Positions 3,994-55,927 of a stretch of 64,000 bases of DNA are shown here, piece by piece. The notes under the pieces are model-generated. The model had not been told where the DNA came from and searched no databases. It worked only from the letters and a program-made list of their open reading frames with translations. Within the stretch, counting starts at the first letter, position 1; the number at the start of each line of letters is the position of its first letter. The DNA is from Pseudorhodoferax aquiterrae. Its GTDB lineage: Bacteria; Pseudomonadota; Gammaproteobacteria; Burkholderiales; Burkholderiaceae_C. The DNA is taken from NCBI RefSeq assembly GCF_014652235.1, contig NZ_BMYK01000011.1, positions 85,473 to 149,472 of the forward strand, read 5' to 3'. A program made the translations under genes and the position numbers.

Positions 3994-5007
3994 ATGTCCC
4001 GCGACAAGCAGACACCCGATGCCCAGGACACCGTGCGCAAGCAGCAGCGCATCCAGCGCGAACAGGACCACCGCGACGCCGAAGCCCGCGCCCAGGCCAA
4101 GGGCCAGCCGGACGACGGCGGCACGCAGGGCAAGAAGGCCGCCCCCGGCCCGCACCGCGACGAGCCGGCGCCGCCCATGTCGCGCCAGCACCTGGCCAAG
4201 CCGGGCCTGGAGGCCGAGATGGCGCAGAAGCCGCGGTTCGCCGCGCCGCACTACCAGGGCAGCGGCAAGCTTGCGGGCTTTGCCACGCTGGTGACGGGCG
4301 GCGACTCGGGCATCGGCCGCGCCGTGGCCGTGCTGTACGCGCGCGAGGGGGCCGACGTGGCCATCGTCTACCTCAACGAGCACGAAGACGCCGAGCGCAC
4401 GCGCGAACTCGTCGAGGCCGAAGGCGGGCGCTGCCTGCTGATCCCCGGCGACGTGAAGGACCCGGCGTTCTGCCGCGAGGCCGTGGCCAAGACCGTGCAG
4501 GCCTTCGGCAAGCTCGACGTGCTGGTCAACAACGCAGCCTTCCAGGAGCATGCCCAGGCCATCGAGGACCTCAGCGAGGAGCGCTTCGACGAGACGCTGC
4601 GCACCAACGTCTACGGCTACTTCCACATGGCCAAGGCGGCAGTGCCGCACCTGCGGCGCGGCGCCAGCATCGTCAATTGCGGTTCGGTCACCGGGCTCAA
4701 GGGCAGCAAGCACCTGCTGGACTACTCGGCCACCAAGGGTGCGATCCACGCCTTCACGATGTCGCTGGCGGCCAACCTCATGGACAAGGGCATCCGCGTC
4801 AACGCCGTGGCGCCGGGCCCGGTCTGGACGCCGCTGAACCCGGCCGACAAGCCGGCCGACGAGATCGCGCAATTCGGCGCCGGCACCGACATGGGCCGCC
4901 CGGCCCAGCCAGAGGAGATCTCGCCGGCCTTCGTGTTCCTGGCCGCGCCGTGCTGCTCCAGCTACATCAGCGGCATCGTGCTGCCCGTCACGGGCTCGGT
5001 GGGCTGA
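3994..5007 (+). CDS. SDR-family oxidoreductase, general-stress type
   Basis: A 337-residue short-chain dehydrogenase with a roughly 95-residue hydrophilic N-terminal extension, the arrangement of general-stress SDRs such as YhdF/YdaD. The Rossmann motif TGGDSGIG (about residue 101), NNAA, the catalytic Ser in NCGSVTG and the YSATK catalytic Tyr/Lys pair are all present, so it should be an active NAD(P)-dependent reductase. ATG 3994 has a CAAGGAG ribosome site 6 bases upstream. Its TGA stop (5005-5007) overlaps the first base of repeat element copy 1. Substrate is unknown. Confidence 0.9.
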   Translation: MSRDKQTPDAQDTVRKQQRIQREQDHRDAEARAQAKGQPDDGGTQGKKAAPGPHRDEPAPPMSRQHLAKPGLEAEMAQKPRFAAPHYQGSGKLAGFATLVTGGDSGIGRAVAVLYAREGADVAIVYLNEHEDAERTRELVEAEGGRCLLIPGDVKDPAFCREAVAKTVQAFGKLDVLVNNAAFQEHAQAIEDLSEERFDETLRTNVYGYFHMAKAAVPHLRRGASIVNCGSVTGLKGSKHLLDYSATKGAIHAFTMSLAANLMDKGIRVNAVAPGPVWTPLNPADKPADEIAQFGAGTDMGRPAQPEEISPAFVFLAAPCCSSYISGIVLPVTGSVG

Positions 5008-5228
5008 GAACGTGTGAACGAACCGCTCACACCCACGCGAGGCCCCGGTGAGCACCTGCTTCCAGCATGATCGTCGCGCCCGGGGCCTCGCCCTTCGGGC
5101 CGGCGCGCGCCAGGCCGCATGGGGGCGTTGCAGTCCTTGCCCGGGCACCAGCCCGGGCTGCGGCCTGCGCCTTCGCCTGCGGCCCGCCGCACCCCGTCGT
5201 GGGCGCGATTGGTTCATTCACACGTTCT
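5007..5228. repeat. TIR element copy 1 (222 bp, inverted relative to copies 2 and 3)
   Basis: The ends are AGAACGTGTGAACGAACC and GGTTCATTCACACGTTCT, an imperfect terminal inverted repeat extending about 31 bases. Internal hairpins include GCCCGGGC arms around a four-base loop and a longer GAGGCCCCG/CGGGGCCTC stem. CTGA occurs directly on both sides. The left end coincides with the SDR stop codon. The right end supplies the last codons and stop of the LMW phosphatase. About nine-tenths of positions match copies 2 and 3 by eye. Confidence 0.9.
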
Positions 5229-5696
5229 GATCCTGGCCAGCAGGCCGTCCACGCCGCGGTCGATGAGGTCGAAGGCGTGGATGAAGTCCTGTGTGCTGCC
5301 GTACCAGGGGTCGGGCACGTCCTCGCCCGCATGGCCGGGCGCAAAGTCGAGCATCAGCGCGATCTGCGCACGGGCGCCGGCCGGTGCCTGGCGGCGCAGC
5401 GCCGCGCAGTGCGCCTGCGTCATGCCGACGATCCAATCGAAGCGCGCGAAATCCTCGCCCCGCACCTGGCGCGCGCAGTGGTCATGGGCCGGCACGCCGC
5501 GGCGCCGCAGTTCCGCGGCGGCACGGCGGTCGAACGGGTTGCCGCGTTCCTCGTCGGAGATCGCGGCGCTGTCGACGGCGAGCTGCAGGCCGGCCGCGCG
5601 GGCCTTGTGCACGAGCAGCGCATGGGCCGTGGGCGAGCGGCAGATGTTGCCGGTGCAGATAAAGAGGACGCTGGGGAAAGAGGAATGGCCGGGCAT
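5214..5696 (-). CDS. Low-molecular-weight protein-tyrosine-phosphatase
   Basis: 160 residues with the LMW-PTP P-loop CTGNICRS near the N-terminus (nucleophilic Cys14, Arg20) and the general-acid loop VPDPWYGS near residue 130, so the catalytic machinery is complete. The family dephosphorylates phosphotyrosine or phosphoarginine in the cytoplasm. The last residues, RTCE, and the stop codon lie inside repeat element copy 1. If the element is removed together with one CTGA repeat, the frame would instead end in ISPPSP, so the present C-terminus seems to be element-derived. It is divergent from the solute-binding protein gene. Confidence 0.9.
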   Translation of the reverse strand: MPGHSSFPSVLFICTGNICRSPTAHALLVHKARAAGLQLAVDSAAISDEERGNPFDRRAAAELRRRGVPAHDHCARQVRGEDFARFDWIVGMTQAHCAALRRQAPAGARAQIALMLDFAPGHAGEDVPDPWYGSTQDFIHAFDLIDRGVDGLLARIRTCE

Positions 5697-5767
5697 CGCG
5701 CGATTGTCGCGACCAGGCCGTCCACCGTGCTAGCGTTGCGCCCTTCGTTGCACAAAGGCGCTTTCGC

Positions 5768-6502
5768 ATGACCACCTCCGTGTCCGACCTCGTCCCGGCC
5801 TTCGCCCCCACCGGGCGCCTGCGCGCCTCCATCAACCTGGGCAACCCCATCCTGGCCGGCCGCGACGCCGCAGGCCAGGCCCAGGGCGTATCGGTGGACC
5901 TCGCGCGCGCCTTCGCCGAGCGGCTCGGTGTGGCCCTGGAACTCGTCGTCTTCGACACCGCTGGCAAGTCGGTCGAGGCGGTCCGGGCCGAGCAGGCCGA
6001 CATCGGCTTCTTTGCGATCGACCCGCTGCGCGGCGAGGGCATCCGCTTCACTGCGCCCTATGTGCTGATCGAGGGCTGCTACCTCGTGCGCGCCGATGCG
6101 CCACTGCAGGACAAGGCCGAGGTCGATGCCGCGGGCCGCACGGTCATGGTGGGCCAGGGCAGCGCCTACGACCTGTTCCTCACGCGCGAACTGAAGGCCG
6201 CGACCATCCTGCGCGCACCGAGCTCGCCGGCCGTGGTGCCGAGCTTCCTGGACGAGAATGCGGACGTGGCCGCCGGCGTCAAGCAGCAGCTCGAGGCCGA
6301 TGCCGCGCGGCTGGGCGGGCTGCGCCTGCTGCCGGGTTCCTTCATGGTGATCCAGCAGGCCATGGGCCTGCCCGCCGGCCGCGGGCAGGCAGCGCAGGCG
6401 GCGCTGGCGGCCTTCGTGGAAGAGATGAAGGCCAGCGGCTTCGTGGCCGAGGCGCTGCGACGCCACGGCATCCAGGGTGCGGCGGTCGCGCCGAAAGCCT
6501 AG
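5768..6502 (+). CDS. Solute-binding protein family 3 domain protein without signal peptide
   Basis: 244 residues matching periplasmic amino-acid-type binding proteins: LRASINLGNP at the start, then DIGFFAIDPLRGEGIRFTAPY, a typical lobe-1 stretch, and an EEMKASGFVAEAL C-terminus. Remarkably, the mature fold begins almost at once (residue 15) and there is no hydrophobic leader or lipobox, and none in frame upstream. It is therefore either cytoplasmic, exported by another route or mis-started. No permease or ATPase gene is adjacent. It ends overlapping the convergent YihY gene by 4 bases. Confidence 0.8.
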   Translation: MTTSVSDLVPAFAPTGRLRASINLGNPILAGRDAAGQAQGVSVDLARAFAERLGVALELVVFDTAGKSVEAVRAEQADIGFFAIDPLRGEGIRFTAPYVLIEGCYLVRADAPLQDKAEVDAAGRTVMVGQGSAYDLFLTRELKAATILRAPSSPAVVPSFLDENADVAAGVKQQLEADAARLGGLRLLPGSFMVIQQAMGLPAGRGQAAQAALAAFVEEMKASGFVAEALRRHGIQGAAVAPKA

Positions 6503-7458
6503 TCCTTGACCGAGGTCGGCGCCGGCTCCGTGGCCGAGCCCGGCAGGTGGCGCATGGAGCCGTACTGCTTGGCGTACAGCCAGGTGAACTCCGCGCCCAT
6601 CAGGAACACCTGGGCCGAGTAGTAGACCCAGACGAAGATCACGATCAGCGAGCCGGCCGCGCCGAAGCTCGACGCCACGCCGCTCTTGCCGATGTACAGC
6701 CCGATCAGGAAGCGGCCCAGCGTGAACAGCAAGGCCGTGACGGCCGCACCGATCCACACGTCGTACCAGCGCACGTGCACGCGCGGCATGATCTTGTAGA
6801 TCATCGCGAACACGCCGGTCGTCAGCGCGAAGCCCAGCACGATGTTGATGAGCTGGGCCACGATCTCCCAGCCGGCGAAGGCATCGCCCCACCACTTGCC
6901 CAGGGCCGAGACCACGGCGCCCAGCACCAGCGAGACCATCAGCAGGAAGGCGATGCCCAACACCATGCCGAACGACAGCAGCCGCGTGTGCAGCAGGTTC
7001 CACAGCCCGCCCGAGGTGTTGCGCGCGGGCGCGCGCCAGATCCGGTCCAGCGCGTTCTGCAGTTCGCCGAACACGGTGGTGGCGCCGATCAGCAGAACGC
7101 CCAGGCCGATCAGCGTGGAGACGATGCCCTGGGCCGGCTTGTTGACACTGGCCAGCAGCGTCTCCAGCGTCTTGGCCGCGTCGGCGCCCATGAGGCCGGC
7201 GAGTTGGCCGAACAGCTCGCCGCGCGCGGCCTCCTCGCCGAACACCAGGCCGGCGACCGAGATCACGATCAGCAGCAGCGGCGCCATCGAGAACACGCTG
7301 TAGTAGGACAGGGCTGCGCCCATGCTGGGCGCGTAGTCGTCCGACCAGGACTGCACGGCCTGCTTGCACAGCGCCAGCCACTGCTTGAAGGTCGGCAGGA
7401 TGGGACGGTCGGGCGAGCGCTGCGGTGCGGTGGCGGAGGAGGGGACGACGGTGCTCAT
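6499..7458 (-). CDS. YihY/BrkB-family inner-membrane protein
   Basis: 319 residues with six hydrophobic segments and the family's characteristic stretches: MGAALSYYSVFSMAPLLLIV near residue 45, LQNALDRIWRAP, and VIFVWVYYSAQVFLMGAEFT near residue 285. Known members are integral inner-membrane proteins once misnamed RNase BN; their transport role is not settled. The start codon overlaps the stop of the upstream AsmA gene (ATGA at 7455-7458), so the two are translationally coupled, which fits a shared envelope function. Confidence 0.9.
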   Translation of the reverse strand: MSTVVPSSATAPQRSPDRPILPTFKQWLALCKQAVQSWSDDYAPSMGAALSYYSVFSMAPLLLIVISVAGLVFGEEAARGELFGQLAGLMGADAAKTLETLLASVNKPAQGIVSTLIGLGVLLIGATTVFGELQNALDRIWRAPARNTSGGLWNLLHTRLLSFGMVLGIAFLLMVSLVLGAVVSALGKWWGDAFAGWEIVAQLINIVLGFALTTGVFAMIYKIMPRVHVRWYDVWIGAAVTALLFTLGRFLIGLYIGKSGVASSFGAAGSLIVIFVWVYYSAQVFLMGAEFTWLYAKQYGSMRHLPGSATEPAPTSVKD

Positions 7459-9521
7459 GGTCTGGATCGCGTGGTCGGGGCGGCGGCCTTGGCGGCCGGC
7501 CCGGCGCTGGCCAGCAGGCGCTGGCAGTCGGTGTCTTCGCCGGGGCCGGTCTCGATCAAGGGTAGCAGGGCGGCGAGCGGGTTGACCAGCGCCAGCGCCA
7601 CGGCGCCGCCGCCACGCAGGGCCAGGCCGGCCTTGTCGAGTTCGAAGTCGGGCGAGCGGAAGCTGCCGTACACGCGCACTGGCGTGCGCAGCGACAGGAT
7701 GCCGGCCTTCTTGGGCTTGGGCGCGATGGTCAGGTCGAAGCGCTCGTGGTCGAGGTCGAATCCGCCATCGCCCTCGATGCGCGTGTCCTCGGTATCGATG
7801 ACGAACAGCTGCGACTTGCCCTGGCCGTCCTTCACGTCGAAGGAAACGGCCCCGCAGTTGATCGGGATGGGCTTGTCGCCGCCCATGAGCAGCGTGAGGA
7901 TCTTGCCGCCATTGAGGCCCGACACGGCGTCGAGCAGGTTGGACACCTGGCCCCGCGAGAGCGCGGCCTGCACCTGGCCGTCGGCCTTGGCCGCCAGGTC
8001 GGCGATGGAGTTGCCGCTGGCGCTGAGCTTGGCGCGCGCACCCATGGCGCCGCTCGAGGGTGCGAGCCGGGGCGAGGGCGGCACCAGCCGCGCGAGCTTG
8101 AGCCGGCGTGCCGTGATGTCCACGTCGGCGCGCAGGGTGGGCTGCTGCGCGTCGAGCCGCACTACGGATCGGATCTCGCCGTCGGCCAGATCCACGTCGA
8201 ACGGGTCCAGGCGCAGCACCGCATCCTTGAGGTCCAGCTTCACGCGCAGGTTCTGCAGTGCGATGAAGTCCGGCGCGTCGATGCGGTCCACGCGCAGGTC
8301 GGCCTTGGCGTCGATGGCCTTGAAGCGCCCGCCCTCGAACTTGCCCGTGGGCAGCAGCCGCTCGCCCTGCACGGTGCCCGTGGGCAGGGCGCGTTCGCCG
8401 CTGGTCTGCTTCTCGCGGGCCTGGGCCCGTTCGCGCGTCTGCGTTTCGGCCTGCGTGAGCGGCCGGGCGTCGGCGGTCTCCTTGGTCGTGAGGCCGACCA
8501 GCGGCCCCAGGTCGGGCAGGTTCAGCAGCTTGCTGTGCAGCGTGGTGGTGAGCAGCGGGCGCGGTTCACGCTGCACGTAGGCGGCTTCGCCGGCCACGTC
8601 GGTCTTGCCGATGCGGCCCTGGATGTCCTGCATGGAATAGCGGTTGCCGTCGAGCTTCAGATGGCCGGACAGGCGGTAGGGCGGGGAGGCTGGCAGCGGC
8701 AGCAGCAGAAAGGGATAGAGGTTGGCGAGCGTGTTGCCGGCGATGTTCAGCCGCACGTCGATGCCGCTGATGTTGGCGGCGTCGGCCACGGTGCCCTCCA
8801 CGTCGAGCCGCGTGGTGCCGGCCACGAGCCGGCCCTGGATCGGGAACGGGACGTCCGAGCCCTGGAAGCTCAGCACATCGCCGGTCTGGGCCTGGCCGCT
8901 GAACTTGGCATCGTGGTAGGTGCCGGCGAAGCGGTAGCGTGTGGTGTAGCGCGCGTTGTCGGGGCGGGCCTTGGCGTCGTCGGCCTTGGCCGCGGCCGCC
9001 GGGTCGAAGGTCTCGACATCGACGCCGATGTCGAAAGGCGTGGTCCGGTCCACGTAGCGCAGCTTGCCCTGGCGGACCGACAGGCTGGAGATCAGCAGCT
9101 TGCTCGGCTCCTTGGTTTCCGACGGCTCGCCCAGCACCCAGTTGCGGCGCTCGTCCTTGGCTTTCTCGAAGTTGAGCTCGGCCTGGTCCATCGCCACGCG
9201 CGGCACGAAGACCTTGCCGTTCCACAGGTCGCGCAGCGAGACCGAGAACTCCAGCGTGCCGATGCGGGCCATGGGGTGGTCGCCCGTGCCGTCGGCCCAG
9301 TCCGCATTCGCGAAGTAGACGTCCTTGAGGCGGATCACCGGGTTCCAGCCCAGCTGGACGGCCAGGTGAGAACTGTCGAAACGGCGCTGCGTCTTTTCGC
9401 TGATGGTGCGGTTGAGCGGGCCGCGCAGCCAGTCCCAGTCGAACAGCAGCAGGAACACCACGAGTGCACCGAGCAGGGCCAGCAGGATCTTCGTGCCGCG
9501 ACCGGGAGAGAAAGCGCGCAT
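7455..9521 (-). CDS. AsmA-family envelope protein
   Basis: 688 residues with an N-terminal membrane anchor (about 13-27, ILLALLGALVVFLLLFDW) followed by a long periplasmic beta-rich body. It ends in an AsmA C-terminal domain (GAMGARAKLSASGNSIADLA and LTIAPKPKKAGILSLRTPVR). AsmA-like proteins bridge the periplasm and are linked to phospholipid transfer to the outer membrane. The first gene of a coupled pair with the YihY-like protein. Members vary in length and this size is normal. Confidence 0.88.
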   Translation of the reverse strand: MRAFSPGRGTKILLALLGALVVFLLLFDWDWLRGPLNRTISEKTQRRFDSSHLAVQLGWNPVIRLKDVYFANADWADGTGDHPMARIGTLEFSVSLRDLWNGKVFVPRVAMDQAELNFEKAKDERRNWVLGEPSETKEPSKLLISSLSVRQGKLRYVDRTTPFDIGVDVETFDPAAAAKADDAKARPDNARYTTRYRFAGTYHDAKFSGQAQTGDVLSFQGSDVPFPIQGRLVAGTTRLDVEGTVADAANISGIDVRLNIAGNTLANLYPFLLLPLPASPPYRLSGHLKLDGNRYSMQDIQGRIGKTDVAGEAAYVQREPRPLLTTTLHSKLLNLPDLGPLVGLTTKETADARPLTQAETQTRERAQAREKQTSGERALPTGTVQGERLLPTGKFEGGRFKAIDAKADLRVDRIDAPDFIALQNLRVKLDLKDAVLRLDPFDVDLADGEIRSVVRLDAQQPTLRADVDITARRLKLARLVPPSPRLAPSSGAMGARAKLSASGNSIADLAAKADGQVQAALSRGQVSNLLDAVSGLNGGKILTLLMGGDKPIPINCGAVSFDVKDGQGKSQLFVIDTEDTRIEGDGGFDLDHERFDLTIAPKPKKAGILSLRTPVRVYGSFRSPDFELDKAGLALRGGGAVALALVNPLAALLPLIETGPGEDTDCQRLLASAGPAAKAAAPTTRSRP

Positions 9522-9662
9522 GGGGTGCAGCCTATGCCTGCGCCCGCAGCGGCTGCGGCGGCCCCGGCAGCATCCGCGCGGCAGCGCCGGGCGGGACCGG
9601 CTGTCGGACGGCGACTACATGCGGCTAAGCTTGCCGGCCTTTGCACCCACGGAGACTTTTCG

Positions 9663-10616
9663 ATGTCCGCCCCCAAGGGCACCTGGCTCGGCGTGGCCTG
9701 CGGCATGGCCGCCGGCGCAGCCTGGGGCCTGGTGTTCCTCGCGCCAGAGCTGGCGCCCGAATTCAGCCCGCTGCAGTTGTCGGCCGCGCGTTACCTGGCC
9801 TACGGCCTCATCGCTGCGGCGCTGCTGCTGCCGCGCTGGCGGGCCGTGCGCCCGCATGTGGGCGCAAGCGCCTGGCGCGCGCTGTTCTGGCTCAGCCTGC
9901 TCGGCAACAGCCTGTACTACGTGCTGCTGGCCAGCGCCGTGCAGATCGGCGGCATGGCCATGACCTCGCTCGTGATCGGCTTCCTGCCCGTGGCTGTCAC
10001 CTGGGTCGGCAGCCGCGGCGCCGACGCGGTGCCCTTGCGCAGGCTCGCGCCGTCGCTGGCGCTGGGCCTGGCCGGCGTGGCCTGCATTGCTTGGGAATCG
10101 CTCGCCGGCGCATCGGCCCAGCCGCCGGCGCAGCGCTGGCTGGGTTTTGCCTGCGCGGTCGGTGCGCTGGTCTCGTGGTCCAGCTATGCGGTGGGCAACA
10201 GCCGCCAGCTGGCGCGGCTGCGCGGCGTGTCGGCGCACGACTGGAGCCTGCTCACGGGCGTGGTCACGGGTGCGCAGGCGCTGGTGCTGGCGGTGCCGGC
10301 TTTCGTGCTGGCCGATCTCGCGCTGCAGCCGGCCAGCGCCTGGTGGCGCTTCGCCGGTGTCTCGGCCGGCGTGGCCCTGCTGGCATCGGTGCTGGGCAAT
10401 GCGCTGTGGAACCAGGCCAGCCGGCTGCTGCCGCTCACACTCGTCGGCCAGATGGTGGTGTTCGAGACGCTGTTCGCGCTGCTCTACGGCTTTCTGTGGG
10501 AGGTGCGCTGGCCCACGGCCCTGGAATGGCTGGCGATGGCACTGGTGACCAGCGCCGTGCTGTCGTGCATCTCGGCGCACCGCGCACCGGCCGCGGTGGA
10601 CGAGATGCATCCATGA
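9663..10616 (+). CDS. DMT-superfamily (EamA) transporter
   Basis: 317 residues with about ten hydrophobic segments arranged as two EamA repeats. Family-like stretches include AAGAAWGLVFLAPELAP at residues 15-31 and FETLFALLYGFLWEVRWPT near residue 275. These inner-membrane proteins export metabolites or drugs, and the substrate cannot be deduced. ATG 9663 follows directly on MSAPKGTW with a weak upstream purine tract; longer in-frame extensions lie over the divergent AsmA promoter and were not used. The DUF2784 gene starts 10 bases after its stop. Confidence 0.88.
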   Translation: MSAPKGTWLGVACGMAAGAAWGLVFLAPELAPEFSPLQLSAARYLAYGLIAAALLLPRWRAVRPHVGASAWRALFWLSLLGNSLYYVLLASAVQIGGMAMTSLVIGFLPVAVTWVGSRGADAVPLRRLAPSLALGLAGVACIAWESLAGASAQPPAQRWLGFACAVGALVSWSSYAVGNSRQLARLRGVSAHDWSLLTGVVTGAQALVLAVPAFVLADLALQPASAWWRFAGVSAGVALLASVLGNALWNQASRLLPLTLVGQMVVFETLFALLYGFLWEVRWPTALEWLAMALVTSAVLSCISAHRAPAAVDEMHP

Positions 10617-10626
10617 GGGGTACTGC

Positions 10627-11391: not shown

Positions 11392-11403
11392 GGTGTCGCC
11401 ATG

Positions 11404-11827
11404 TTCCGGCCGGACTGGCTGCGCGCACCAGCGGGATCTGCCGCAGGGCGGCTCAGGCTGCGGCGAATCCGGCGGCCTGGGCTAGCCCGCTGGGGTGAAC
11501 GCAGCTCCCGCCTGTTGATCCGCCAACCGGCTTTATTCGGATGCCAGCTCGGTCGAACGACACCCGCAGATCAGTTTCGGCTGGAACGCGCCCATCAGAG
11601 CCATTCGCAGTGATGAACAAGACTCCCGGAAGCCGAGTAACGTGGATGCTGCGCTGCACAGAGCCGCAACGGTTCTGCAGCACGGCTCGGCAAGCAAGCC
11701 CACAGTGTCGAACCGAACGGAGAGAACGAGACGGGCGCAGTCTGAACTGGGGATTTGCTTTGGATGCGGGCGCTGGCGTTCGTGTACCCCTGCAAGGGCA
11801 AACCCTCGCGCATCCGCCCAGCCGCTG
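11404..11827. other. Gene-free stretch at the left border of the catabolic cluster
   Basis: About 420 bases with visibly lower GC than neighbouring genes and no reading frame with credible composition, start signal or family resemblance. It could be degraded DNA at the border of an acquired segment. I see no transposase remnant, tRNA or terminal repeat in it. Confidence 0.5.
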
Positions 11828-13674: not shown

Positions 13675-13696
13675 GTCATCTCCTCCCTGGACTGCG

Positions 13697-23487: not shown

Positions 23488-23503
23488 GCGGGGAAGGCGG
23501 CTC

Positions 23504-23726
23504 AGAACGTGTGAATGAACCGATCGCGCCCACGACGGGGCGCGGCGGGCCGCAGGCGCAGGCGCGGGCCGCAGCCCGGGCTGGTGCCCGGGCAAGGACC
23601 GCAACGCCCGCATGCGGCCTGGCGCGGCCCGGCCCGAAGGGCGAGGCCCCGAGCGCAACGAACATGATGGAAACGGCTGCTCATCCGGGGCCTCGCGTGG
23701 GTGTGAGCGGTTCGTTCACACGTTCT
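23504..23726. repeat. TIR element copy 2 (223 bp)
   Basis: Starts AGAACGTGTGAATGAACC and ends GGTTCGTTCACACGTTCT, flanked on both sides by TCAG. The right end overlaps the TGA stop of the REC-HK-REC hybrid kinase (23726-23728). Carries the same internal hairpins as copy 1 and the same 60-codon reading frame on the minus strand. Confidence 0.9.
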
Positions 23727-25345
23727 CAGCCCAGCAGGCGCCGGATCGCGTTGAGCAGCAGTTGCGGCTCGAAGGGCTTGGCCACGTGCGCGTCGAAGCC
23801 GGCGTCCAGCGCCATGGCGCGGTCGTCCGGCCGGCCGAAGGCGGTCAGCGCGATGGCCGGCAGCCGCGGCAGGCCCTGGCGGGCCTCCAGCGCGCGCCAG
23901 TGGCGGATCAGCGCATAGCCGTCCTTGCCGGGCAGGCCGATGTCGCTGAGCAGCAGGTCGGGGCGGCAGGCCTGCAGCGCTGCCAGGCCACCGTCGTGGT
24001 CGCCCGCGATGCTCACCTGGGCACCGCGGTCCTCCAGGATGTGGCCCAGCATGTCGGCCGCGTCGCGGTCGTCCTCCACCACCAGCACCTTGCGCCCGCT
24101 CAGGCCCGCGAGCGCGGCATCGTCGAGCACGCCGGGCTGCGACTCGGGGGCCGGGCTGCCGTCGGCCGCGGTCGGCTGCAGCGGCAGCCAGACATGGGCG
24201 GTGGTGCCGGCGTCCAGGCCGGGGCTGCTCAGCGCCACGCCGCCGCCATGCAGCTCGGCCAGGTGCTTGACGATGGACAGGCCCAGCCCCAGGCCGCCGC
24301 TGGCCCGCTTGCCCGGCGCCTCGCTCTGCGTGAACTTCTCGAAGACGCGGTCGAGGAAGGCCGGGGCGATGCCCTTGCCCTGGTCCGTCACCGTCAGTTC
24401 CAGCCGATCGGCCGTGCGCGCCAGCGCCACGCGCACGCTGCCGCCCGGGTGCGAGAACTTGATCGCGTTGTTGAAGATGTTCCAGAAGATCTGCTGAAAG
24501 CGCGCCGGGTCGAGCAGCACCGGACCCGTGGCCTGCAGTTGGAGATCCAGGTGCAGGGCCCGGCTGCCCAGCTGCTGGCGCATCGCGTCGATGGACGACT
24601 GCACCAGCGCCACCGGGTCGGCCAGCTCGCGCTGCAGCGCCAGCTTGCCCGAGTTGATGCGCGAGACGTCCAGGATGTCCGAGATGATGCGCGCCTGCGT
24701 CTGCGCGTTGCGCCGGATCGCGTCCAGCCCCTTGGCGATCTCCGGCGGCTGCGGCTTTCGCTGCAGCACGTGCACGTTCATGAGGATCGCATTGAGCGGG
24801 TTGCGCAGCTCGTGCGAAAGCACGGCGACGAAGTCGTCCTTGGTGCGGCTGTGGCGCTCTGCATTGGCGCGCGCGGCCTGTTCGCGTTCCAGCAGCAGCT
24901 GCTTGTAGCGCTGCTCGGTCTCGCGCAGCTGTTCCTCGGCGATGCGCGCGCGGATCAGCGCCTGCACCGTGGCGACCAGCACGGCCGGCTCGACCGGGTG
25001 CTCCAGGTAGGCGTCGGCGCCCGAGTTCAGGCCGGCCACCTTGTCCGAACTCTCGATGTAGGTGGCCGACAGGTGCAGTACCGGCAGCACCACGGTCTCT
25101 GGCAGCTCGCGCAGCATGCGGCACACCGTGAAGCCGTCCATGTCGGGCAGGTGCACGTCCAGCACCACGGCCGAGATGCCGCCGGCACGGGCGCGGTCCA
25201 GGCCGGTGCCGCCGCTGGTCGCCTCCACCGTCTGGAAGCCCGCCGCGCGCAGGATGCGGCAGGTCGAATAGCGGGTGGCGGGGTTGTCGTCGACCACCAG
25301 CACCTGGTGCTGCGCGCGGTCGATGGTGATGCTGACCTTGTGCAT
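23726..25345 (-). CDS. Hybrid sensor kinase REC-HisKA-HATPase-REC, end of stressosome operon
   Basis: 539 residues from ATG 25345. A receiver (VLVVDDNPATR, phospho-Asp in VVLDVHLPDMDG) is followed by a short coiled coil, the H-box LSHELRNPLNAI near residue 177, the ATPase motifs FWNIFNNAIKF, TDQGKGI and GGLGLGLSIV, and a second receiver (VLVVEDDRDAAD, LLLSDIGLPGKDG). It has no membrane helix. It is the last gene of the rsbRST operon, 14 bases after the preceding kinase. It would receive and relay phosphate, probably giving the stressosome a two-component output. The stop codon abuts repeat copy 2. Confidence 0.92.
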   Translation of the reverse strand: MHKVSITIDRAQHQVLVVDDNPATRYSTCRILRAAGFQTVEATSGGTGLDRARAGGISAVVLDVHLPDMDGFTVCRMLRELPETVVLPVLHLSATYIESSDKVAGLNSGADAYLEHPVEPAVLVATVQALIRARIAEEQLRETEQRYKQLLLEREQAARANAERHSRTKDDFVAVLSHELRNPLNAILMNVHVLQRKPQPPEIAKGLDAIRRNAQTQARIISDILDVSRINSGKLALQRELADPVALVQSSIDAMRQQLGSRALHLDLQLQATGPVLLDPARFQQIFWNIFNNAIKFSHPGGSVRVALARTADRLELTVTDQGKGIAPAFLDRVFEKFTQSEAPGKRASGGLGLGLSIVKHLAELHGGGVALSSPGLDAGTTAHVWLPLQPTAADGSPAPESQPGVLDDAALAGLSGRKVLVVEDDRDAADMLGHILEDRGAQVSIAGDHDGGLAALQACRPDLLLSDIGLPGKDGYALIRHWRALEARQGLPRLPAIALTAFGRPDDRAMALDAGFDAHVAKPFEPQLLLNAIRRLLG

Positions 25346-49730: not shown

Positions 49731-49731
49731 A

Positions 49732-50754
49732 TTACTTCGGCAGCGCCTCCACCTCCCGGGTCCAGCGGTCGATCAGCCGCTTGCGCTCGGCCGACTTGCC
49801 GTACTTCTCGAAGTCGTACTTGATGAGCTTGACGCTATCGATGGCGGGGATGCGCGGGTCGGGCTTGAAGGTGCGGTTGGCCGGCGTCTGGTAGCTGCCC
49901 ACCGTGGCGCCGATGGCCTGGCCGGCCGGGCCCATGAGCCAGTCGTAGTACTTCTGCGCGTTGGCCTTGTTGCGCGCGCCCTTCACGAGCGCGATGCCGC
50001 CGATCTCGTAGCTCGTGCCCTCGCAGGGCGCGGCCGTCTTCACGGGGTACTTGTCGTGCTTCCACTTCTCGAAGTTGAAGGCAAAGGTCACGCCGATGGC
50101 GACTTCGCCCTTGGCCACGTTGGGCGCCTGGGCCTGGCCGCTGCGCGTGTACTGGGTCACGTTGCGGTGCAGCTTCTTGAGGTAGTCGAAGGCGGCGTCC
50201 TCGCCCATCTGCTGCACCAGGCCGGCGATGACGGTGTAGGCCGTGCCGCTGGAGGCCGGATGCGAGATCTCGATCTCGCCCTTGTATTCGGGCTTGATCA
50301 GGTCGGCCCAGCACTTGGGCTCGGGCAGGCCCTTCTTCTTGAGCAGCTCGGTGTTGTAGCCGAAGCCGATGGTGCTGGTGTAAAAGCCCCCGACCTGGTT
50401 GCCGCTCATGGCGTACTGGCGCACGGACCATTCGTGCAGGTCGTTGATGTAGGCCGGGCGGTAGGCATCGAGCAGGCCGACCTCGGCGGCCTGCAGGAAG
50501 GGGTCGCCGGTGCCGCCCCACCAGATGTCGGTCTTGGGGTTCTGGGCCTCGGCGCGCAGCTGGGCCCCGATCTCGCCCGTGCCCTTGTGCGCCTGGTTGA
50601 CCTTGATGCCGGTCTGGCGCGTGAACGCGGCGGCCGCGGCCTCGCACCAGGGCGCGTCGGTGCTGCACAGCGCGTTGACCACGCCCTGGGCCTGGGCGCC
50701 CATGGCGAGGGCCGCGATGGCCAGGGTGGGGAGGGTGCGGACGAAGAGGGGCAT
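49732..50754 (-). CDS. ABC transporter substrate-binding protein, iron/phosphonate/phosphoglycerate type
   Basis: 340 residues from ATG 50754 (GGAG upstream). A signal peptide ends at AMGAQAQG. The type-2 periplasmic fold shows VNALCSTDAPWCEAAAAAFT, KTDIWWGGTGDPFLQAA, GFGYNTELLKKKGLPEPKCW and NKANAQKYYDWLMGPAGQAI. The FbpA/PhnS/PgtC-like family binds Fe3+, 2-aminoethylphosphonate or phosphoglycerate. Two Cys near the N-terminus are unusual. No permease or ATPase gene adjoins it. The adjacent two-component pair may sense the same solute, as in PgtABC systems. Confidence 0.88.
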   Translation of the reverse strand: MPLFVRTLPTLAIAALAMGAQAQGVVNALCSTDAPWCEAAAAAFTRQTGIKVNQAHKGTGEIGAQLRAEAQNPKTDIWWGGTGDPFLQAAEVGLLDAYRPAYINDLHEWSVRQYAMSGNQVGGFYTSTIGFGYNTELLKKKGLPEPKCWADLIKPEYKGEIEISHPASSGTAYTVIAGLVQQMGEDAAFDYLKKLHRNVTQYTRSGQAQAPNVAKGEVAIGVTFAFNFEKWKHDKYPVKTAAPCEGTSYEIGGIALVKGARNKANAQKYYDWLMGPAGQAIGATVGSYQTPANRTFKPDPRIPAIDSVKLIKYDFEKYGKSAERKRLIDRWTREVEALPK

Positions 50755-50834
50755 GCGGTCTCCAGTTGTTGTGTCGGTGCAGGCCATTGTGGGACGGCCC
50801 GCCCGCGCATGCGCTCCGGGTTTTCAGCCAGCGT

Positions 50835-51209
50835 TCAACCCGCCTGCGGCACCAGGTCGAGGAAGCCGCTGACTTCGGCCAGCCGGCCGTCGCCCGCGAG
50901 CACCGCGAAGTCCGTGCCCTTGGCCACGGCGGTGGCGGCATCGGGGCCCAGCGTCCAGCGAAAGCGCAGGCGCTCGCCATGGCCGTCGGCCTGGCCATCG
51001 AGGTGAAAGCGCAGGCCGCCGAACTGCTGCTGCGCCGCGCCGATCATCTGGTCCAGTGCCGCGTGGCCCTGGGCCTGCATGAGCGGGTCGGTGTAGCGCG
51101 CGTCGGGCGCGAAGGCCTGCGCGATCGCCGCGGCGCGCGCGGCGCCGGTGGCGTTCCAGGCGGCGATGTACTGCTGGGCGATGGCCTGGTAGTCGAGGGC
51201 GGTGTTCAT
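50835..51209 (-). CDS. SnoaL/NTF2-like protein
   Basis: 124 residues from ATG 51209, with GGAGAG upstream. It has the cone-shaped NTF2-like fold pattern: an N-terminal helix IAQQYIAAWNATGAARAAAI, then ARYTDPLMQAQGHAALDQMI and four beta strands (LRFRWTLG, FAVLAGDGRLAEVSGFLDLV). Family members are polyketide cyclases, isomerases or binding proteins; the role here is unknown. It lies between ureD and the solute-binding protein on the same strand but with gaps of about 80-105 bases, so it may have its own promoter. Confidence 0.85.
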   Translation of the reverse strand: MNTALDYQAIAQQYIAAWNATGAARAAAIAQAFAPDARYTDPLMQAQGHAALDQMIGAAQQQFGGLRFHLDGQADGHGERLRFRWTLGPDAATAVAKGTDFAVLAGDGRLAEVSGFLDLVPQAG

Positions 51210-51314
51210 GGACGGGCTCTCCTGCGTTGCGGCGTCCCACCGTGGAACGCCATGGCGCAAGAGTAGGGCGCGGCCCGCGCGCAGGCCATGACCTGGCAGG
51301 TCATGGCGGCGCAG

Positions 51315-52145
51315 CTACATGGCCCAGATGCGTGGCGGCGTGGCCGGCAGCTGCCAGCAGGCGCCACGCCAGGCGGCCCAGATCTGCTTCATGAGGCCCA
51401 TGGCCGGCTCGACCACGGGCGCCAGCGCACGCACCACGACCACCTGCGCGTTCGGGCTGGTCGCACCGGCCGTGGCGCGCAGCGCGTGACCGTCGATCAC
51501 GGCGCGCGCAGCGTCCAGCACCTGCTCGCGCCGGGCGCGCGCGAGCTTGTCGCCGCAGGCGAAGAACAGCGTGGCGATGCAGCGCTGGCCGGCCATGCCC
51601 AGCGGGCTGTCGAGCAGCAGGGCGTCGTCGGCCGCCATGCGCGCGCGCTCGAGCCAGACGCCGGGCAGTTCCAGGTGCTGGTGCAGCTGGCCCCGCGCGA
51701 ACGGCTTGCCGGCATGGGGCAGGCCCAGCGCAGTGATGTCCCAGCCGATGAGTTCGGCGCCCGGCGCAAGCTGCAGGCGGAGCCGGTTCTCGGCCAGGCA
51801 CTCGTCGTAGCACAGCGTCTCGGCCGGCAGCCATTCGAAGCGGGCGCCGGGGGCCAGCTTGAGCTCCGTGCGCTGTGCGGCGGTCTCGCCCGCGCTGCGG
51901 TAAAAGCGCGCCGCGCCGGGTGTGGTCACCAGGCCGTGCGCGCCTTCGCCCACGTCGATGCCGATGTCCAGCACGTCGCCGCCCACGAGCCCCCCCGGCG
52001 GGTGCACGAGCACGTTGTGGCAGATGCCCTCGTGCTCCGGATAAAGGCTTTGCAGCACGCGCAGCGGGCCCTGATGGCGGTGGCGCGCGACGCTGCGACC
52101 GGCTTCGAGACGGTAGTCCAGCGCGAGGCTGGCATGCCAGGCCAC
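51315..52145 (-). CDS. ureD: Urease accessory protein UreD, orphan
   Basis: 276 residues of a complete UreD: LRVLQSLYPEHEGICHNVLV, HPPGGLVGGDVLDIGI, TTPGAARFYRSAG, LPAETLCYDECLAENRLRLQ and a C-terminal PATPPRIWAM. UreD is the scaffold on which UreF and UreG deliver nickel to urease. In Burkholderiales it normally directly precedes ureA; here no ureABC, ureE, ureF or ureG gene is present on either side, and an NTF2-like gene follows instead. It is either a relic or serves urease genes elsewhere in the genome. Confidence 0.93.
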   Translation of the reverse strand: MAWHASLALDYRLEAGRSVARHRHQGPLRVLQSLYPEHEGICHNVLVHPPGGLVGGDVLDIGIDVGEGAHGLVTTPGAARFYRSAGETAAQRTELKLAPGARFEWLPAETLCYDECLAENRLRLQLAPGAELIGWDITALGLPHAGKPFARGQLHQHLELPGVWLERARMAADDALLLDSPLGMAGQRCIATLFFACGDKLARARREQVLDAARAVIDGHALRATAGATSPNAQVVVVRALAPVVEPAMGLMKQIWAAWRGACWQLPATPPRIWAM

Positions 52146-52203
52146 GTCAGCCCGCCGGTGCGGCTTGCACGGTCGGCAACGCAGGTGCCAGCGCGGAGCC
52201 GAT

Positions 52204-52307
52204 GGCCGCGGAGCAGGCCATGCCAGCGACCGCCGCGGAACTGGCTCTGCCAGGCCGCCGGCGGTGCCCCCCTTCGCGCAGCAGAAGGGGGGAGCGGCGA
52301 AGCCGCT
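52204..52307 (-). repeat. Intergenic hairpin repeat, copy B
   Basis: Between opgD and ureD. The segment 52204-52223 is the reverse complement of the 20-base core in copy A. It is followed by a nine-base perfect CCCCCCTTC/GAAGGGGGG hairpin (52267-52292) and an AGCGGC/GCCGCT hairpin (52293-52307). It may also terminate the opgD transcript. Confidence 0.6.
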
Positions 52308-52319
52308 TGGGGGGATGTC

Positions 52320-53909
52320 TCATAACAATTGATACAGCCAGGTCTCGGAGAGCGTCTGGTCGCCGATCTTGAGGAACAGGCGCAGGTCCACCGGCCCGTT
52401 GCCCTCGGGCGTGTAGTCGAACTGGGCGCGCCAGTGGCCGGCCACGTTGTTCGGCACGGCCTCGGTGAAGACGTAGGAGAAGCTGCCGCGCGGCGCGCTC
52501 AGCACGGCCTCGGGCTTGACGCCGAAAGGCACGTTGGCCAGCGGCCCGCCCAGGAACTCGACCATGAACTTGCGCACGCCCTGTGGCCGCGGCTGGCCCG
52601 GCACGCCGCCGCGGCCGATGCGCGTGGCCACGCAGCGCGCCAGCGGCGAGGGAAAGGGCTCGTCCGCGACCCAGTGCAGGCGGTAGCGCAGGTCGTAGCT
52701 GCTGCCGGCCGCGGCCTTGGCCTTGGGCACCCAGAAGGCGCCGATGTTGTCGTGGATCTCGTCGTCGGTGGGGATCTCGACGAGCTCGACCGCACCCTCG
52801 CCGAAGTCCGACAGCGGCTCCACCCACAGGCTGGGGCGCTTGTCGTAGTTCACGCCGTCCAGGTAGTGGTCGAAGTTGCGGTCGCGCTGCATCAGGCCGA
52901 AGCCCTTGGGCGACCTGTCGCCGAAGGCCGAGATGCCGGTGGACGCGGGGTTGTTGAGCGGGCGCCAGATGCGCTCGCCGGCGCCGGTCCACAGCGCCAG
53001 GCCGTCGGAGTCGTGCACCTCGGGGCGCCAGTCGATGCCGCTGGGCTTGAGCTTGTCCGAATACCAGTACATCGAGGTCAGCGGCACCAGGCCGAGGCGC
53101 GCCACGTCCTGGCGCAGGAACAGCTTGCAGTCGATGTCCATGGTCACGGCCTGGTCGCGCCGCATCTGGAAGCGGTAGGCACCCGCGATGCTGGGGCCTT
53201 CGAGCAAGGCATAGACCACCACCGTGTTGCTGCCCTCGGCGGGCGGCTCGAACCAGACCTGCGTGAAGGCCGGGAACTCCTCGTTCTTGCCGTTCACGGC
53301 CACGTCCAGCGCCACGCCCCGCGCCGACAGGCCGTACTGGTACAGGCCGCCGATGGCGCGGAAGTAAGAAGCACCGAGAAAGGCGACCCAGTCGTTGCCC
53401 TGCCAGGGCAGCTTGGCCTGGTCGCCCAGCCGGCTTTCCTGGAAGCGGAATCCCGCGAAGCCCGCGCCGGGGGGCAGGGCCTTGGCCGGGCTGTCGGCCG
53501 GCATCTCGAAGTAGGCCGGGTCGTAGAGGATCTCGCGGCCGCGCGCGCCGCTGCCGGCCTTGTCCAGCACATGCATGTGCACAGGCGTCTGGAAGTAGCG
53601 GCCCATGTGGAAGAAGGTGACCGGGAAGGGGCCGGGCCCGTCCTTGAACAGCGCGAAGTCCGTCTTGTACTTGAGCTTGCCGTGCGCGTCGTAGTCGATG
53701 CGCTCGAGCACATCGGCCGGCAGCGGCGGCGGTGGTGCGTGGGGCTTGGCGGCCAGTGCGCGTGCGCGCGTGACCAGTTGTTCGAACGAGAACGGCGTGG
53801 CCGGGCCGAGCCTCAGGCCGGCTTGTGCCATCGCCTGGGGCGACAGCCCCAGCGCGGCCAGCGCGGCGGTGGTGCCGCCGGCGGTCAGAAGGGTTCTGCG
53901 GTGCAACAT
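52320..53909 (-). CDS. opgD: Periplasmic glucan biosynthesis protein (OpgD/OpgG family)
   Basis: 529 residues from ATG 53909. The leader HRRTLLTAGGTTAALAALGL has a twin Arg and looks Tat-dependent, which favours OpgD over OpgG. Family stretches include FSFEQLVTRARALAAKPHAP, FHMGRYFQTPVHMHVLD, WVAFLGASYFRAIG, YQYGLSARGVALDVA and FVFTEAVPNN-type C-terminal phrases. The protein acts in the periplasm on osmoregulated beta-glucan backbones. The OpgH glucosyltransferase partner is not in the window. Hairpin repeat copy B follows. Confidence 0.87.
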   Translation of the reverse strand: MLHRRTLLTAGGTTAALAALGLSPQAMAQAGLRLGPATPFSFEQLVTRARALAAKPHAPPPPLPADVLERIDYDAHGKLKYKTDFALFKDGPGPFPVTFFHMGRYFQTPVHMHVLDKAGSGARGREILYDPAYFEMPADSPAKALPPGAGFAGFRFQESRLGDQAKLPWQGNDWVAFLGASYFRAIGGLYQYGLSARGVALDVAVNGKNEEFPAFTQVWFEPPAEGSNTVVVYALLEGPSIAGAYRFQMRRDQAVTMDIDCKLFLRQDVARLGLVPLTSMYWYSDKLKPSGIDWRPEVHDSDGLALWTGAGERIWRPLNNPASTGISAFGDRSPKGFGLMQRDRNFDHYLDGVNYDKRPSLWVEPLSDFGEGAVELVEIPTDDEIHDNIGAFWVPKAKAAAGSSYDLRYRLHWVADEPFPSPLARCVATRIGRGGVPGQPRPQGVRKFMVEFLGGPLANVPFGVKPEAVLSAPRGSFSYVFTEAVPNNVAGHWRAQFDYTPEGNGPVDLRLFLKIGDQTLSETWLYQLL

Positions 53910-54225
53910 CGGGCCGAATGTACCGGAGCGGCCAGCCTTGTCCGAAGGGCCTGCCCGAGATGGGCCATTGGGCGACGGACGCTTGCGGCCTGCGCCTACA
54001 CCGCAGTGCGCCGTGCGCTGCGGCGGGAGGACGACGTCCGACGGCCCGGCCGTTCGATCTTGCAGGCGTCGATCTGGTTTGTTGTCCTGGCGCAAGTCCG
54101 GCGCGCCGGTGCTGCCTAGACTTCCGAGCAGGCGCGGGGCAGGCATGCAACCGGTGCCGGGCGAGCCGACCGGTGCAGCGTGCGCCCGCGACCCGCATGA
54201 CGACGAAGAACGGAAGGAGTTCAGC
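53910..54225. other. Non-coding region between opgD and the alcohol dehydrogenase
   Basis: 316 bases, divergent promoters for opgD and the dehydrogenase. I see a GGAAGGAG ribosome site for the dehydrogenase but no further gene, RNA or repeat. Confidence 0.5.
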
Positions 54226-55296
54226 ATGTTGATGAAGGCAGCTGTGTTCGTGGAGCCCGGCCGGATCGTGCTGGAAGACAAGCCGGTCCCCGATGTCGGA
54301 CCCAATGACGCGCTGTTGCGCGTGACGACGACGACGATCTGCGGAACCGATGTGCACATCCTCAAAGGCGAGTACCCGGTCGCCCGCGGGCTCACCGTGG
54401 GGCACGAGCCCGTGGGTGTGATCGAGAAGCTCGGATCGGCCGTGCAAGGCTATGCCGAAGGCCAGCGCGTGATCGCCGGAGCCATCACGCCCAGCGGTTG
54501 GAGCAATGCCTGTCTGTGCGGTCAGTGCGCACAAGACGGCGCCGGCACGCCGCACGGCTTCAAGGCGATGGGGGGCTGGAAGTTCGGCAACACGATCGAC
54601 GGCTGCCAGGCGGAGTATGTGCTCGTGCCCGATGCCATGGCCAACCTGGCGCCGGTACCCGATGGCCTGTCCGACGAGCAGGTGCTGATGTGCCCCGACA
54701 TCATGTCCACGGGTTTCAGCAGCGCCGAGTCGGGCGGCGTGCGCATCGGCGACAGCGTCGCCGTGTTTGCCCAAGGGCCGATCGGCCTGTGCGCGACGGC
54801 CGGCGCGAAGCTGAGCGGCGCGAGCCTGGTGATCGGCGTGGACCGGCTGCCCGAGCGGTTGCGCATGGCCGCGACACTGGGGGCGGACGCTGTCGTGGAC
54901 AGCAGCCGACAGGACCCCGTGGCGGAGATCATGCGCCTGACCGGCGGACGCGGCGTCGATGTCGCGATCGAGGCGTTGGGCACGCAGGCGACGTTCGAAG
55001 CGGCTCTCAGGGTGCTCAGGCCGGGAGGAACGCTGTCCAGTCTCGGCGTGTATTCGACGGACCTCACGATTCCGCTGAACGCCTTCGCCGCGGGTCTCGG
55101 CGACCACCGGATCGTGACCACGCTGTGCCCTGGCGGCAAGGAACGCATGCGCCGGCTCATGGCGGTGATCGCGGCACGCCGGATCGACCTGTCCGCCATG
55201 GTGACGCACCGCTTCCGGCTCGATGACATCGAGTCGGCCTACGAGGTCTTCGCGCACCAGCGTGACGGTGTCCTGAAGGTGGCCATCACGCCGTGA
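54226..55296 (+). CDS. Zinc-dependent medium-chain alcohol dehydrogenase
   Basis: 356 residues from ATG 54226 with GGAAGGAG. MDR features are the catalytic-zinc Cys and His-Glu in ICGTDVHILKGEYPVARG and GLTVGHEPVG, a cysteine-rich structural-zinc lobe (NACLCGQCAQD) and the NAD-binding region VAVFAQGPIGLCATAGAKLS. The structural lobe has three visible Cys, fewer than the usual four. The type resembles NAD-dependent isopropanol/2,3-butanediol-like dehydrogenases. The physiological substrate is unknown. Small frames and repeat copy 3 follow it. Confidence 0.9.
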   Translation: MLMKAAVFVEPGRIVLEDKPVPDVGPNDALLRVTTTTICGTDVHILKGEYPVARGLTVGHEPVGVIEKLGSAVQGYAEGQRVIAGAITPSGWSNACLCGQCAQDGAGTPHGFKAMGGWKFGNTIDGCQAEYVLVPDAMANLAPVPDGLSDEQVLMCPDIMSTGFSSAESGGVRIGDSVAVFAQGPIGLCATAGAKLSGASLVIGVDRLPERLRMAATLGADAVVDSSRQDPVAEIMRLTGGRGVDVAIEALGTQATFEAALRVLRPGGTLSSLGVYSTDLTIPLNAFAAGLGDHRIVTTLCPGGKERMRRLMAVIAARRIDLSAMVTHRFRLDDIESAYEVFAHQRDGVLKVAITP

Positions 55297-55386
55297 ACGC
55301 GCCAGGCGTGTCGCTGCGGTCCGGTGGCCGCGGCGCGCGCCAGGGGCGGCCGGTCACAGCGCCACCGAGGAGAGAAGGAGGCACAC

Positions 55387-55521
55387 ATGCCCTTGTTGTC
55401 CCGCAAACCTGGCACCATCGACCGCAGCCTGCCGATCTGCGGTGGCGCGCTGGTCACGGACAGCGCCGGAATCTGCCCGCTGTACGGCCGACCGGGAGTG
55501 CGTTCGTGCGCGCCGTGCTGA
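55387..55521 (+). CDS. Putative 44-residue Cys-containing peptide
   Basis: A short frame begins at ATG 55387 behind a very strong AGAAGGAGG site. It encodes a small basic peptide with Cys at four places (PICGGAL, GICPLYG, RSCAPC), ending in CxxC, so metal binding is conceivable. There is no family match that I know. The strong ribosome site is the main reason to list it. It is 90 bases after the alcohol dehydrogenase and may be in its transcript. Confidence 0.4.
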   Translation: MPLLSRKPGTIDRSLPICGGALVTDSAGICPLYGRPGVRSCAPC

Positions 55522-55643
55522 TACGCGGCGTGGGGCGGTCAGCGCTGCGCCGCGTGCTGTCGTTTCTGACCGGGCTCGCGTTTCTCGGGGGAGTGCTGGT
55601 CCTTGCCATCCGGGCCTACACCGCCTGGGTCACCCTGGACTGA
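55506..55643 (+). CDS. Putative 45-residue single-helix membrane peptide
   Basis: From GTG 55506 a frame reads a basic head (RGVGRSALRR) followed by one hydrophobic helix (VLSFLTGLAFLGGVLVLAIR) and a short tail. It overlaps the end of the preceding peptide frame by 16 bases, as in coupled small genes. Start choice is uncertain, and it could be a chance frame. Confidence 0.35.
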   Translation: MRAVLIRGVGRSALRRVLSFLTGLAFLGGVLVLAIRAYTAWVTLD

Positions 55644-55704
55644 TGCACCGCGACACCTTGGCAGGCGTTTCGCGGGGCATGGAGCATCGTGCGCCGGGAC
55701 GGTC

Positions 55705-55927
55705 AGAACGTGTGAATGAACCGATCGCGCCCACGACGGGGTGCGGCGGGCCGCAGGCGTAGGCGCGGGCCGCCGCCCGGGCTCGTGCCCGGGCAAGGAC
55801 CGCAACGCCCGCATGCGGCCTGGCGCGCCCCGGCCCGAAGGGCGAGGCCCCGAGCGCAACGATCATGATGGAAACGGGTGCTCATCGAGGGCCTCGCGTG
55901 GGTGTGAGCGGTTCGTTCACACGTTCT
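55705..55927. repeat. TIR element copy 3 (223 bp)
   Basis: Starts AGAACGTGTGAATGAACC, ends GGTTCGTTCACACGTTCT, flanked by TCAG on both sides. Same orientation as copy 2. The right end overlaps the TGA stop (55927-55929) of the small conserved gene that follows. The 60-codon internal frame is intact here too (55703-55885, minus). Confidence 0.9.

What the first reader, a model, noticed from the sequence alone, without database searches (positions are those of the whole stretch)
5007..55927. Three-copy 222-223 bp element with terminal inverted repeats that sits on TGA stop codons
Copies lie at 5007-5228, 23504-23726 and 55705-55927. Each has imperfect terminal inverted repeats of about 31 bp (AGAACGTGTGAAYGAACC inward), internal hairpins, and the same direct repeat on both sides (CTGA, or TCAG in the other orientation). 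In every copy the end carrying GAACGTGTGAACG begins inside the TGA stop of a gene: SDR, hybrid kinase, small conserved protein. No transposase is encoded. The simplest reading is a non-autonomous MITE-like or REP-like element targeting C-TGA at gene ends with a 4-bp duplication. The other reading is a structured 3'-UTR or terminator cassette spread by recombination. I do not know a described family with these features.
Basis: partly seen in the sequence, partly recalled or inferred. Interest (0 to 1): 0.78.

Follow-up and report, generated by a model that had tools for sequence, protein, structure and literature searches.

The report
Mobile repeat nested in stop codons
A short non-coding DNA element, related to others across one order of mostly environmental bacteria, inserts in a fixed direction into TGA, mostly at the stop codon that ends a gene, and leaves a TGA on both sides so that the gene stays intact; its family carries a conserved folded structure, and neither its mover nor its function is known.

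Summary
The three window copies belong to 43 full-length copies (plus one cut by a contig end) found in this genome. In element orientation the right flank reads TGA in 43 of 43 and the left in 41 of 43: TGA|GAACGTGTGAAC...GTTCACACGTTC|TGA. The repeat is best read as TGA (3 bp); the base before it varies on the left. Four congeners hold window copies 1 and 2 as empty sites with one TGA, and two congener insertions face an unoccupied TGA in this genome: the element is mobile. The left TGA is a gene's stop codon in 37 to 39 of 43 copies, by two methods. Most of this, perhaps not all, follows from a (C)TGA(G) target plus loss of insertions inside genes. Related forms occur across Burkholderiales, most often 159 bp among those read; their fold is supported by compensatory changes, with G-T/U mismatches favoured on the strand opposite the upstream gene. 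No mobilising gene was found; IS110 and Y1 transposases are not supported, DDE families were not searched. Best filed as a new variant of non-autonomous palindromic repeats (MITE/REPIN/Correia-like).

The parts
5005..5007 (+). TGA stop codon of a short-chain dehydrogenase gene (called 3994-5007); left copy of the direct repeat
   Evidence: single TGA at the empty site in G002-G005
5008..5227 (+). copy 1 of the element (220 bp), GAACGTGTGAACGAACC...GGTTCATTCACACGTTC
   Evidence: folds with z -7.2 on + and -9.6 on -; covariance-model hit to the core only, 5123-5174 minus strand, E 6e-6
5228..5230 (+). right TGA of copy 1
23726..23728 (-). TGA stop codon of a hybrid sensor kinase gene (HisKA, HATPase_c, receiver domains); left repeat of copy 2
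   Evidence: empty site in G004 gap-free, and in G002, G003, G005 with small gaps in the downstream flank
23505..23725 (-). copy 2 of the element (221 bp)
   Evidence: covariance-model hit 23505-23725 + strand, whole model, E 2e-5
23502..23504 (-). right TGA of copy 2
55927..55929 (-). TGA stop codon of a called small gene (55927-56151, no Pfam match at E 0.001); left repeat of copy 3
   Evidence: four relatives keep the gene up to this TGA, after which the flank is not alignable
55706..55926 (-). copy 3 of the element (221 bp)
   Evidence: covariance-model hit to part of the model, 55748-55821 + strand, E 3e-5
55703..55705 (-). right TGA of copy 3

Best explanation
It is a non-autonomous mobile element, mobilised in trans by an enzyme not identified here. 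SHOWN: it sits in TGA (context C-TGA-G preferred) with TGA on both sides, in one orientation relative to TGA, it is too short to encode a transposase, and it has moved within the genus, since orthologous sites are empty. SHOWN: the fold of the 159-bp sister form is conserved with compensatory changes, and mismatches are biased to G-T/U on one strand there and, more weakly, in the 222-bp form. INFERRED: the mover reads the folded ends on that one strand, which would give the fixed polarity. INFERRED: insertion in a stop codon is nearly free because the stop is re-made, so gene ends in this high-GC genome (where many stops read C-TGA-G) collect the survivors, while most insertions inside genes are lost.
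For: 43 full copies, flanks TGA on the left 41 of 43 and on the right 43 of 43. Empty sites with one TGA: copy 1 gap-free over 90 bp in 4 of 5 congeners; copy 2 gap-free in G004 and with small flank gaps in three more; two congener insertions (G002 L121, G003 L137) have unoccupied TGA sites in G000. In the genus the tight end pattern has 76 places in G000 against 0 to 6 in five congeners, i.e. amplification in this lineage. Orientation elsewhere: the end beside TGA reads AAC in 75 of 80 loci, the end beside TCA reads AAT in 41 of 43. Fold: 39 distinct 159-bp sequences, 59 pairs, 96.8% of cells paired, 28 pairs with changes on both sides, 0 of 500 shuffles as high. Pairs chosen without strand preference: G-T 75 against A-C 6 (159-bp family), 158 against 56 (222-bp family, 70 distinct sequences). 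A model of the 159-bp family finds all three window copies, two of them only in part, and the 7 elements in 400 kb of the own genome as its 7 best hits there.
Against: No mover was found, and no longer element with these ends was seen in the own genome (draft in 94 contigs) or among the 80 loci. The strand bias was not significant in the 27 congener copies alone (62 against 30 cells; 22 against 14 pairs, p 0.24). Four of 43 own copies are not on a called stop (six by the stricter reading), and 7 of 27 congener copies are not. A fourth own site (C4:364264) gave no clean empty site: G003 aligned only with a gap at the junction region and G005 hardly at all.
Confidence: 0.72

Rival explanations
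1. Ordinary MITE: internally deleted derivative of a DDE insertion sequence with 3-bp target duplication; orientation and stop-codon position come from target sequence and selection.
For: Terminal inverted repeats, 3-bp direct repeats, no room for an ORF, precise empty sites. In one congener copy (L121) both flanks read TAA while the G000 site reads TGA, as expected of a true duplication rather than a fixed element end, though later mutation of both is possible.
Against: DDE elements with near-identical ends normally insert in both orientations at an asymmetric target (recalled); here 43 of 43 share one. A fixed 159-bp length with a compensatory fold is not expected of deletion derivatives. 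No parent insertion sequence with these ends was seen; DDE transposase families themselves were not searched.
Confidence: 0.3
2. REPIN-like element moved by a Y1 (RAYT/IS200-type) transposase acting on single-strand hairpins.
For: Strand-biased fold, oriented insertion, one RAYT-like Y1 gene in the own genome and Y1 matches in 115 of 150 family genomes. GTAG REPs also often supply a stop codon to flanking ORFs (passage in PMC3733652).
Against: Four genomes with 7 to 14 end matches (G071, G073, G076, G095) had no Y1 match at E 0.001. No end or core lies in the locus of the own Y1 gene, and only one weak core-like match in 21 Y1 loci looked at. No GTAG tag.
Confidence: 0.2
3. Non-autonomous relative of IS110-type elements whose structured RNA guides the recombinase to TGA.
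For: Structured RNA candidate, oriented insertion at a short core, precise empty sites.
Against: No IS110 match in G000 or G004 although both hold copies (4 of 6 genus genomes do have one); 10 IS110 loci carry no such ends apart from one chance-like match. The mechanism is recalled; pairing of element loops with the target was not tested.
Confidence: 0.08
4. A 3'-UTR processing or termination cassette, spread by recombination and kept because it works at gene ends.
For: 37 to 39 of 43 at stop codons, an excess over the motif expectation, strong hairpins.
Against: No terminator-like site with a T run at copy 1 (the only copy scanned). Precise empty sites point to insertion. The better-folding strand is the antisense one.
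Confidence: 0.08

Closest known systems
MITE-like palindromic repeats of bacteria (ERIC, Correia/NEMIS, RUP; properties recalled, names listed in PMC3110155)
   Same: Short, no ORF, terminal inverted repeats, whole element folds into a hairpin, mostly outside genes, many copies
   Different: Target is TGA with fixed orientation and mostly stop-codon position; those families are recalled as TA-targeting; their sequences were not compared here
REP/REPIN elements with RAYT transposases
   Same: Inverted ends, hairpins, mobilisation in trans likely; REP termini can supply stop codons (passage in PMC3733652)
   Different: No GTAG tag; no Y1 match in four element-bearing genomes
BRE, Betaproteobacterial repeat element (PMC3110155: abstract, passages and section 14 read)
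   Same: Repeat of unknown function in Comamonadaceae and Bordetella, with mobile-like features, GC-rich, mostly intergenic
   Different: About 90 bp and often tandem; no stop-codon or terminal-repeat feature reported in the section read.
IS200/IS605 and IS110 elements (mechanisms recalled)
   Same: Oriented insertion at a short target, structured ends or RNA
   Different: No gene of either kind was found linked to the element

Membership tests
MITE | short non-coding element with terminal inverted repeats | tested here: met
MITE | target-site duplication and empty sites | tested here: met
   TGA both sides, single at empty sites; that TGA is a true duplication rather than partly an element end is likely, not proven
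MITE | parent insertion sequence with the same ends | tested here: inconclusive
   none seen by end pattern in the draft own genome nor in the 80 loci; other genomes and DDE families not searched
REPIN/RAYT | GTAG/GTRG-type tag at the hairpin foot | tested here: not met
   ends read TGA|GAACGTGTGAA or TGA|GAASSTGTGAA
REPIN/RAYT | RAYT gene in the host, usually flanked by the repeat | tested here: not met
   one RAYT-like gene present but without the repeat in its locus; no Y1 match in G071, G073, G076, G095
Correia/NEMIS or ERIC | insertion at TA (recalled) | tested here: not met
   target TGA
Correia/NEMIS or ERIC | family-specific sequence | not tested
   their sequences were not compared
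BRE | sequence match to the published repeat | not tested
   sequence not in the text read
IS110 bridge-RNA system | DEDD recombinase in the host | tested here: not met
   no PF01548 match in G000 or G004
Known RNA families | Rfam 15 match | tested here: not met
   no gathering match in the window; none overlapping an element in 8 loci at E up to 5 or 3
Intrinsic terminator | GC stem followed by T run | tested here: not met
   0 found in window 4900-5400; copies 2 and 3 not scanned

The most novel reading that the evidence does not exclude
An order-wide family of mobile structured nucleic acids that insert by an undescribed, strand-specific and orientation-specific mechanism into stop codons, with real preference for gene ends beyond the TGA motif, so that the host gene's stop is regenerated and the insertion is silent.
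Probability: 0.27. Interest if true: 0.87.

Novelty: new variant of a known kind. Interest (0 to 1): 0.68.

Why it matters
If right, it shows a mobile element that copes with dense bacterial genomes by using the stop codon as a safe harbour and re-making it on insertion. Fixed orientation and a covarying, strand-biased fold in elements without any gene point to a mover that is either unknown or not known to work this way. The family is widespread in Burkholderiales, is amplified in this genome compared with five congeners, and offers ready empty/filled site pairs for experiments.

Tried and rejected
Searches that led nowhere: plasmids, phages and E. coli genomes with the 222-bp element, no match; phages with the 159-bp form, no match; Rfam; viral contigs, one end match and no core match. 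Single ends in the own genome: two (L075, L076) were read and taken as chance; four more with 2 mismatches (L077-L080) gave no element match. RAYT/Y1, IS110 and reverse transcriptase were tested as movers and not supported. DDE transposases were not searched as families. Group I and II introns, integron attC sites and IS91-type elements were considered from recall only and set aside.

Papers: PMC3110155, abstract, passages and section 14; PMC3733652, two passages; all others seen as search listings only. That I found no description in print rests on these eight searches of the held library, which lacks most subscription journals.

Rows dropped: 6 of 33 congener loci (L114, L116, L124-L126, L131) were left out of the fold and stop counts as partial or unlike; 23 of the 80 loci had no right end within 400 bases (some loci end earlier) and were left out of the 57; of 45 sequences of 159-160 bp, 5 duplicates and the one of 160 bp were left out of A1. 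One search scored only 40 of 319 candidates and only 13 per genome, so diverged copies may be missed. The two stop-codon counts differ: searches left six copies out (L003, L008, L041, L043, L046, L074), four (L003, L043, L046, L074); one search also showed long coding-like frames across L003, L046 and L074, so some of these may lie inside genes.
Full report
WHAT IS THERE. Searches show the three copies as described. A search of the own genome (7.11 Mb, 94 contigs) with copy 1 lists 40 full-length matches (40 of 319 candidates scored) and the end pattern finds more; 43 full copies and one cut at a contig end were extracted. Thirty-six begin AGAACGTG, with mean pairwise identity 94%; five form a GAAGC subfamily and two have other single changes. 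In element orientation the left flank is TGA in 41 of 43 and the right flank TGA in 43 of 43. The base before the left TGA position is C in 35 of 43 and the base after the right TGA is G in 36 of 43. So the repeat is TGA, in a C-TGA-G context.

MOBILITY. For copy 1 the join of upstream flank, one TGA and downstream flank aligns without gaps over 90 bp to G002, G003, G004 and G005, but not to G001. For copy 2 it aligns without gaps to G004, and with small gaps in the downstream flank to G002, G003 and G005. For copy 3 four relatives share the gene up to TGA, after which the flank is unrelated, and no element match lies there. A fourth own site, C4:364264, gave no clean empty site in G003 or G005. 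In the other direction, insertions of G003 (L137) and G002 (L121) are unoccupied in G000, where the site reads TGA. In L137 the left flank now reads TAA and the right TGA; in L121 both read TAA. One G004 copy (L108) is at the same site as a G000 copy, and a diverged one (L115) shares only the right flank of another. The tight end pattern (up to 1 mismatch) has 76 places in G000 and 6, 2, 6, 0 and 3 in the congeners G004, G003, G002, G001 and G005.

STOP CODONS. With a simple codon-usage gene caller of my own, the left TGA is the stop of a called gene in 39 of 43 own copies, 20 of 27 congener copies, and 46 of 57 loci of other genera (the last set was found by a pattern that demands TGA). An earlier reading by GC at codon positions gave 37 of 43 own copies. 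Of the four exceptions to the caller one lies at a contig edge, one has a stop codon one base upstream, and three (L003, L046, L074) show long coding-like frames across the site. In 400 kb of the own genome, CTGAG falls on stops 54 times, intergenic 38 and in genes 171; G..CTGAG 28, 11 and 52. Weighting TGA sites by the observed context gives an expected stop share of 0.62 among non-coding sites; the context was learned from the insertions themselves, so this leans high. Against 0.62, 39 of 43 has p 2e-5 and 37 of 43 p 5e-4; against 0.72 (the G..CTGAG share) p is 0.003 and 0.02. Selection against insertions in promoters could account for the rest, so active targeting of stop codons is possible but not shown.

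ORIENTATION. Among the loci the end beside TGA reads AAC in 75 of 80 and the end beside TCA reads AAT in 41 of 43. Orientation therefore follows the TGA itself. Of the four own copies not called as stops all have TGA on the right, and two have it exactly at the left end.

FAMILY. The titles that name a genus are Burkholderiales (taxonomy recalled) except one Streptomyces contig with a single unpaired end; several MAG titles name only a higher rank. Of the 57 with both ends, 45 are 159 or 160 bp; the others range from 49 to 267 bp, and 55 of 57 have TGA on the right. Among 60 relatives, 16 have some match to the 222-bp element, mostly partial outside the genus. In a sample of 150 genomes of the family 32 have end matches, with no match of the reversed control pattern in the listed genomes. 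Plasmids of Cupriavidus and Mitsuaria hold repeats with the same core (CGTTGCAAATGCTCGCC, hairpin, TTTGCGCCT) but other ends, and one Variovorax plasmid holds a form with TGA flanks.

FOLD. Copy 1 folds better than shuffles on both strands, more so on the minus strand. For 33 elements of the genus under 95% identity the consensus energy is -113 on the minus strand and -58 on the plus. For 39 distinct 159-bp sequences 59 pairs hold in 96.8% of cells, 28 pairs have changes on both sides, and no shuffle of 500 reaches these values; the structure was derived from the same alignment, which favours it over the slid controls. One pair in the terminal stem is a U-G wobble in 39 of 39. Pairs chosen without strand preference give 75 G-T against 6 A-C cells (25 pairs against 4) in the 159-bp family and 158 against 56 (36 against 15) in the 222-bp family; congeners alone, 62 against 30 (22 against 14), are not significant by pairs. 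A covariance model of the 159-bp family finds the three window copies (E 6e-6 to 3e-5; whole model only for copy 2), the seven elements of the 400 kb as its seven best hits (E up to 1e-4, next 0.02), and the Cupriavidus repeats full length at 74 to 85 bits despite different end letters.

MOVER. No transposase was seen in or between such ends. The own genome has one RAYT-like Y1 gene without the repeat in its locus, no IS110 match, and one reverse-transcriptase fragment. G071, G073, G076 and G095 hold 7 to 14 end matches but no Y1 match at E 0.001. DDE families were not searched. The mover remains unknown.

VERDICT. A real, mobile, non-autonomous family with an unusual combination: TGA target, fixed polarity, stop codon re-made, and a covarying, strand-biased fold. 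It belongs to the broad kind of palindromic mobile repeats but misses tested defining features of REPIN/RAYT, Correia/ERIC and IS110 systems, hence a new variant of a known kind.

Noticed in passing
window 5214-5230: The convergent LMW protein-tyrosine-phosphatase-like gene (5214-5696, minus) ends on a stop codon inside the right end of copy 1; the same holds for the convergent gene at the copy in L002.
   Followed up: partly
L291 646-806, L292 642-803, L294 646-806: Cupriavidus plasmid repeats match the fold model full length (74-85 bits) with quite different terminal repeats and no clear TGA flanks.
   Followed up: partly
L053 1501-1723 and 2473-2695: Two copies in the same orientation with starts 972 bp apart.
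   Followed up: no
L162 19187-19237: A stretch of about 50 bases, apart from the elements studied here, that recurs at many places in the five congeners, up to 100% identity.
   Followed up: no
L242, L211, L258: Very short forms (49, 57, 65 bp) that keep the ends and TGA flanks and are too short for the core; either deletion derivatives or minimal movers.
   Followed up: no
L331 1887-1906: One end match in a 139-kb IMG/VR contig.
   Followed up: no
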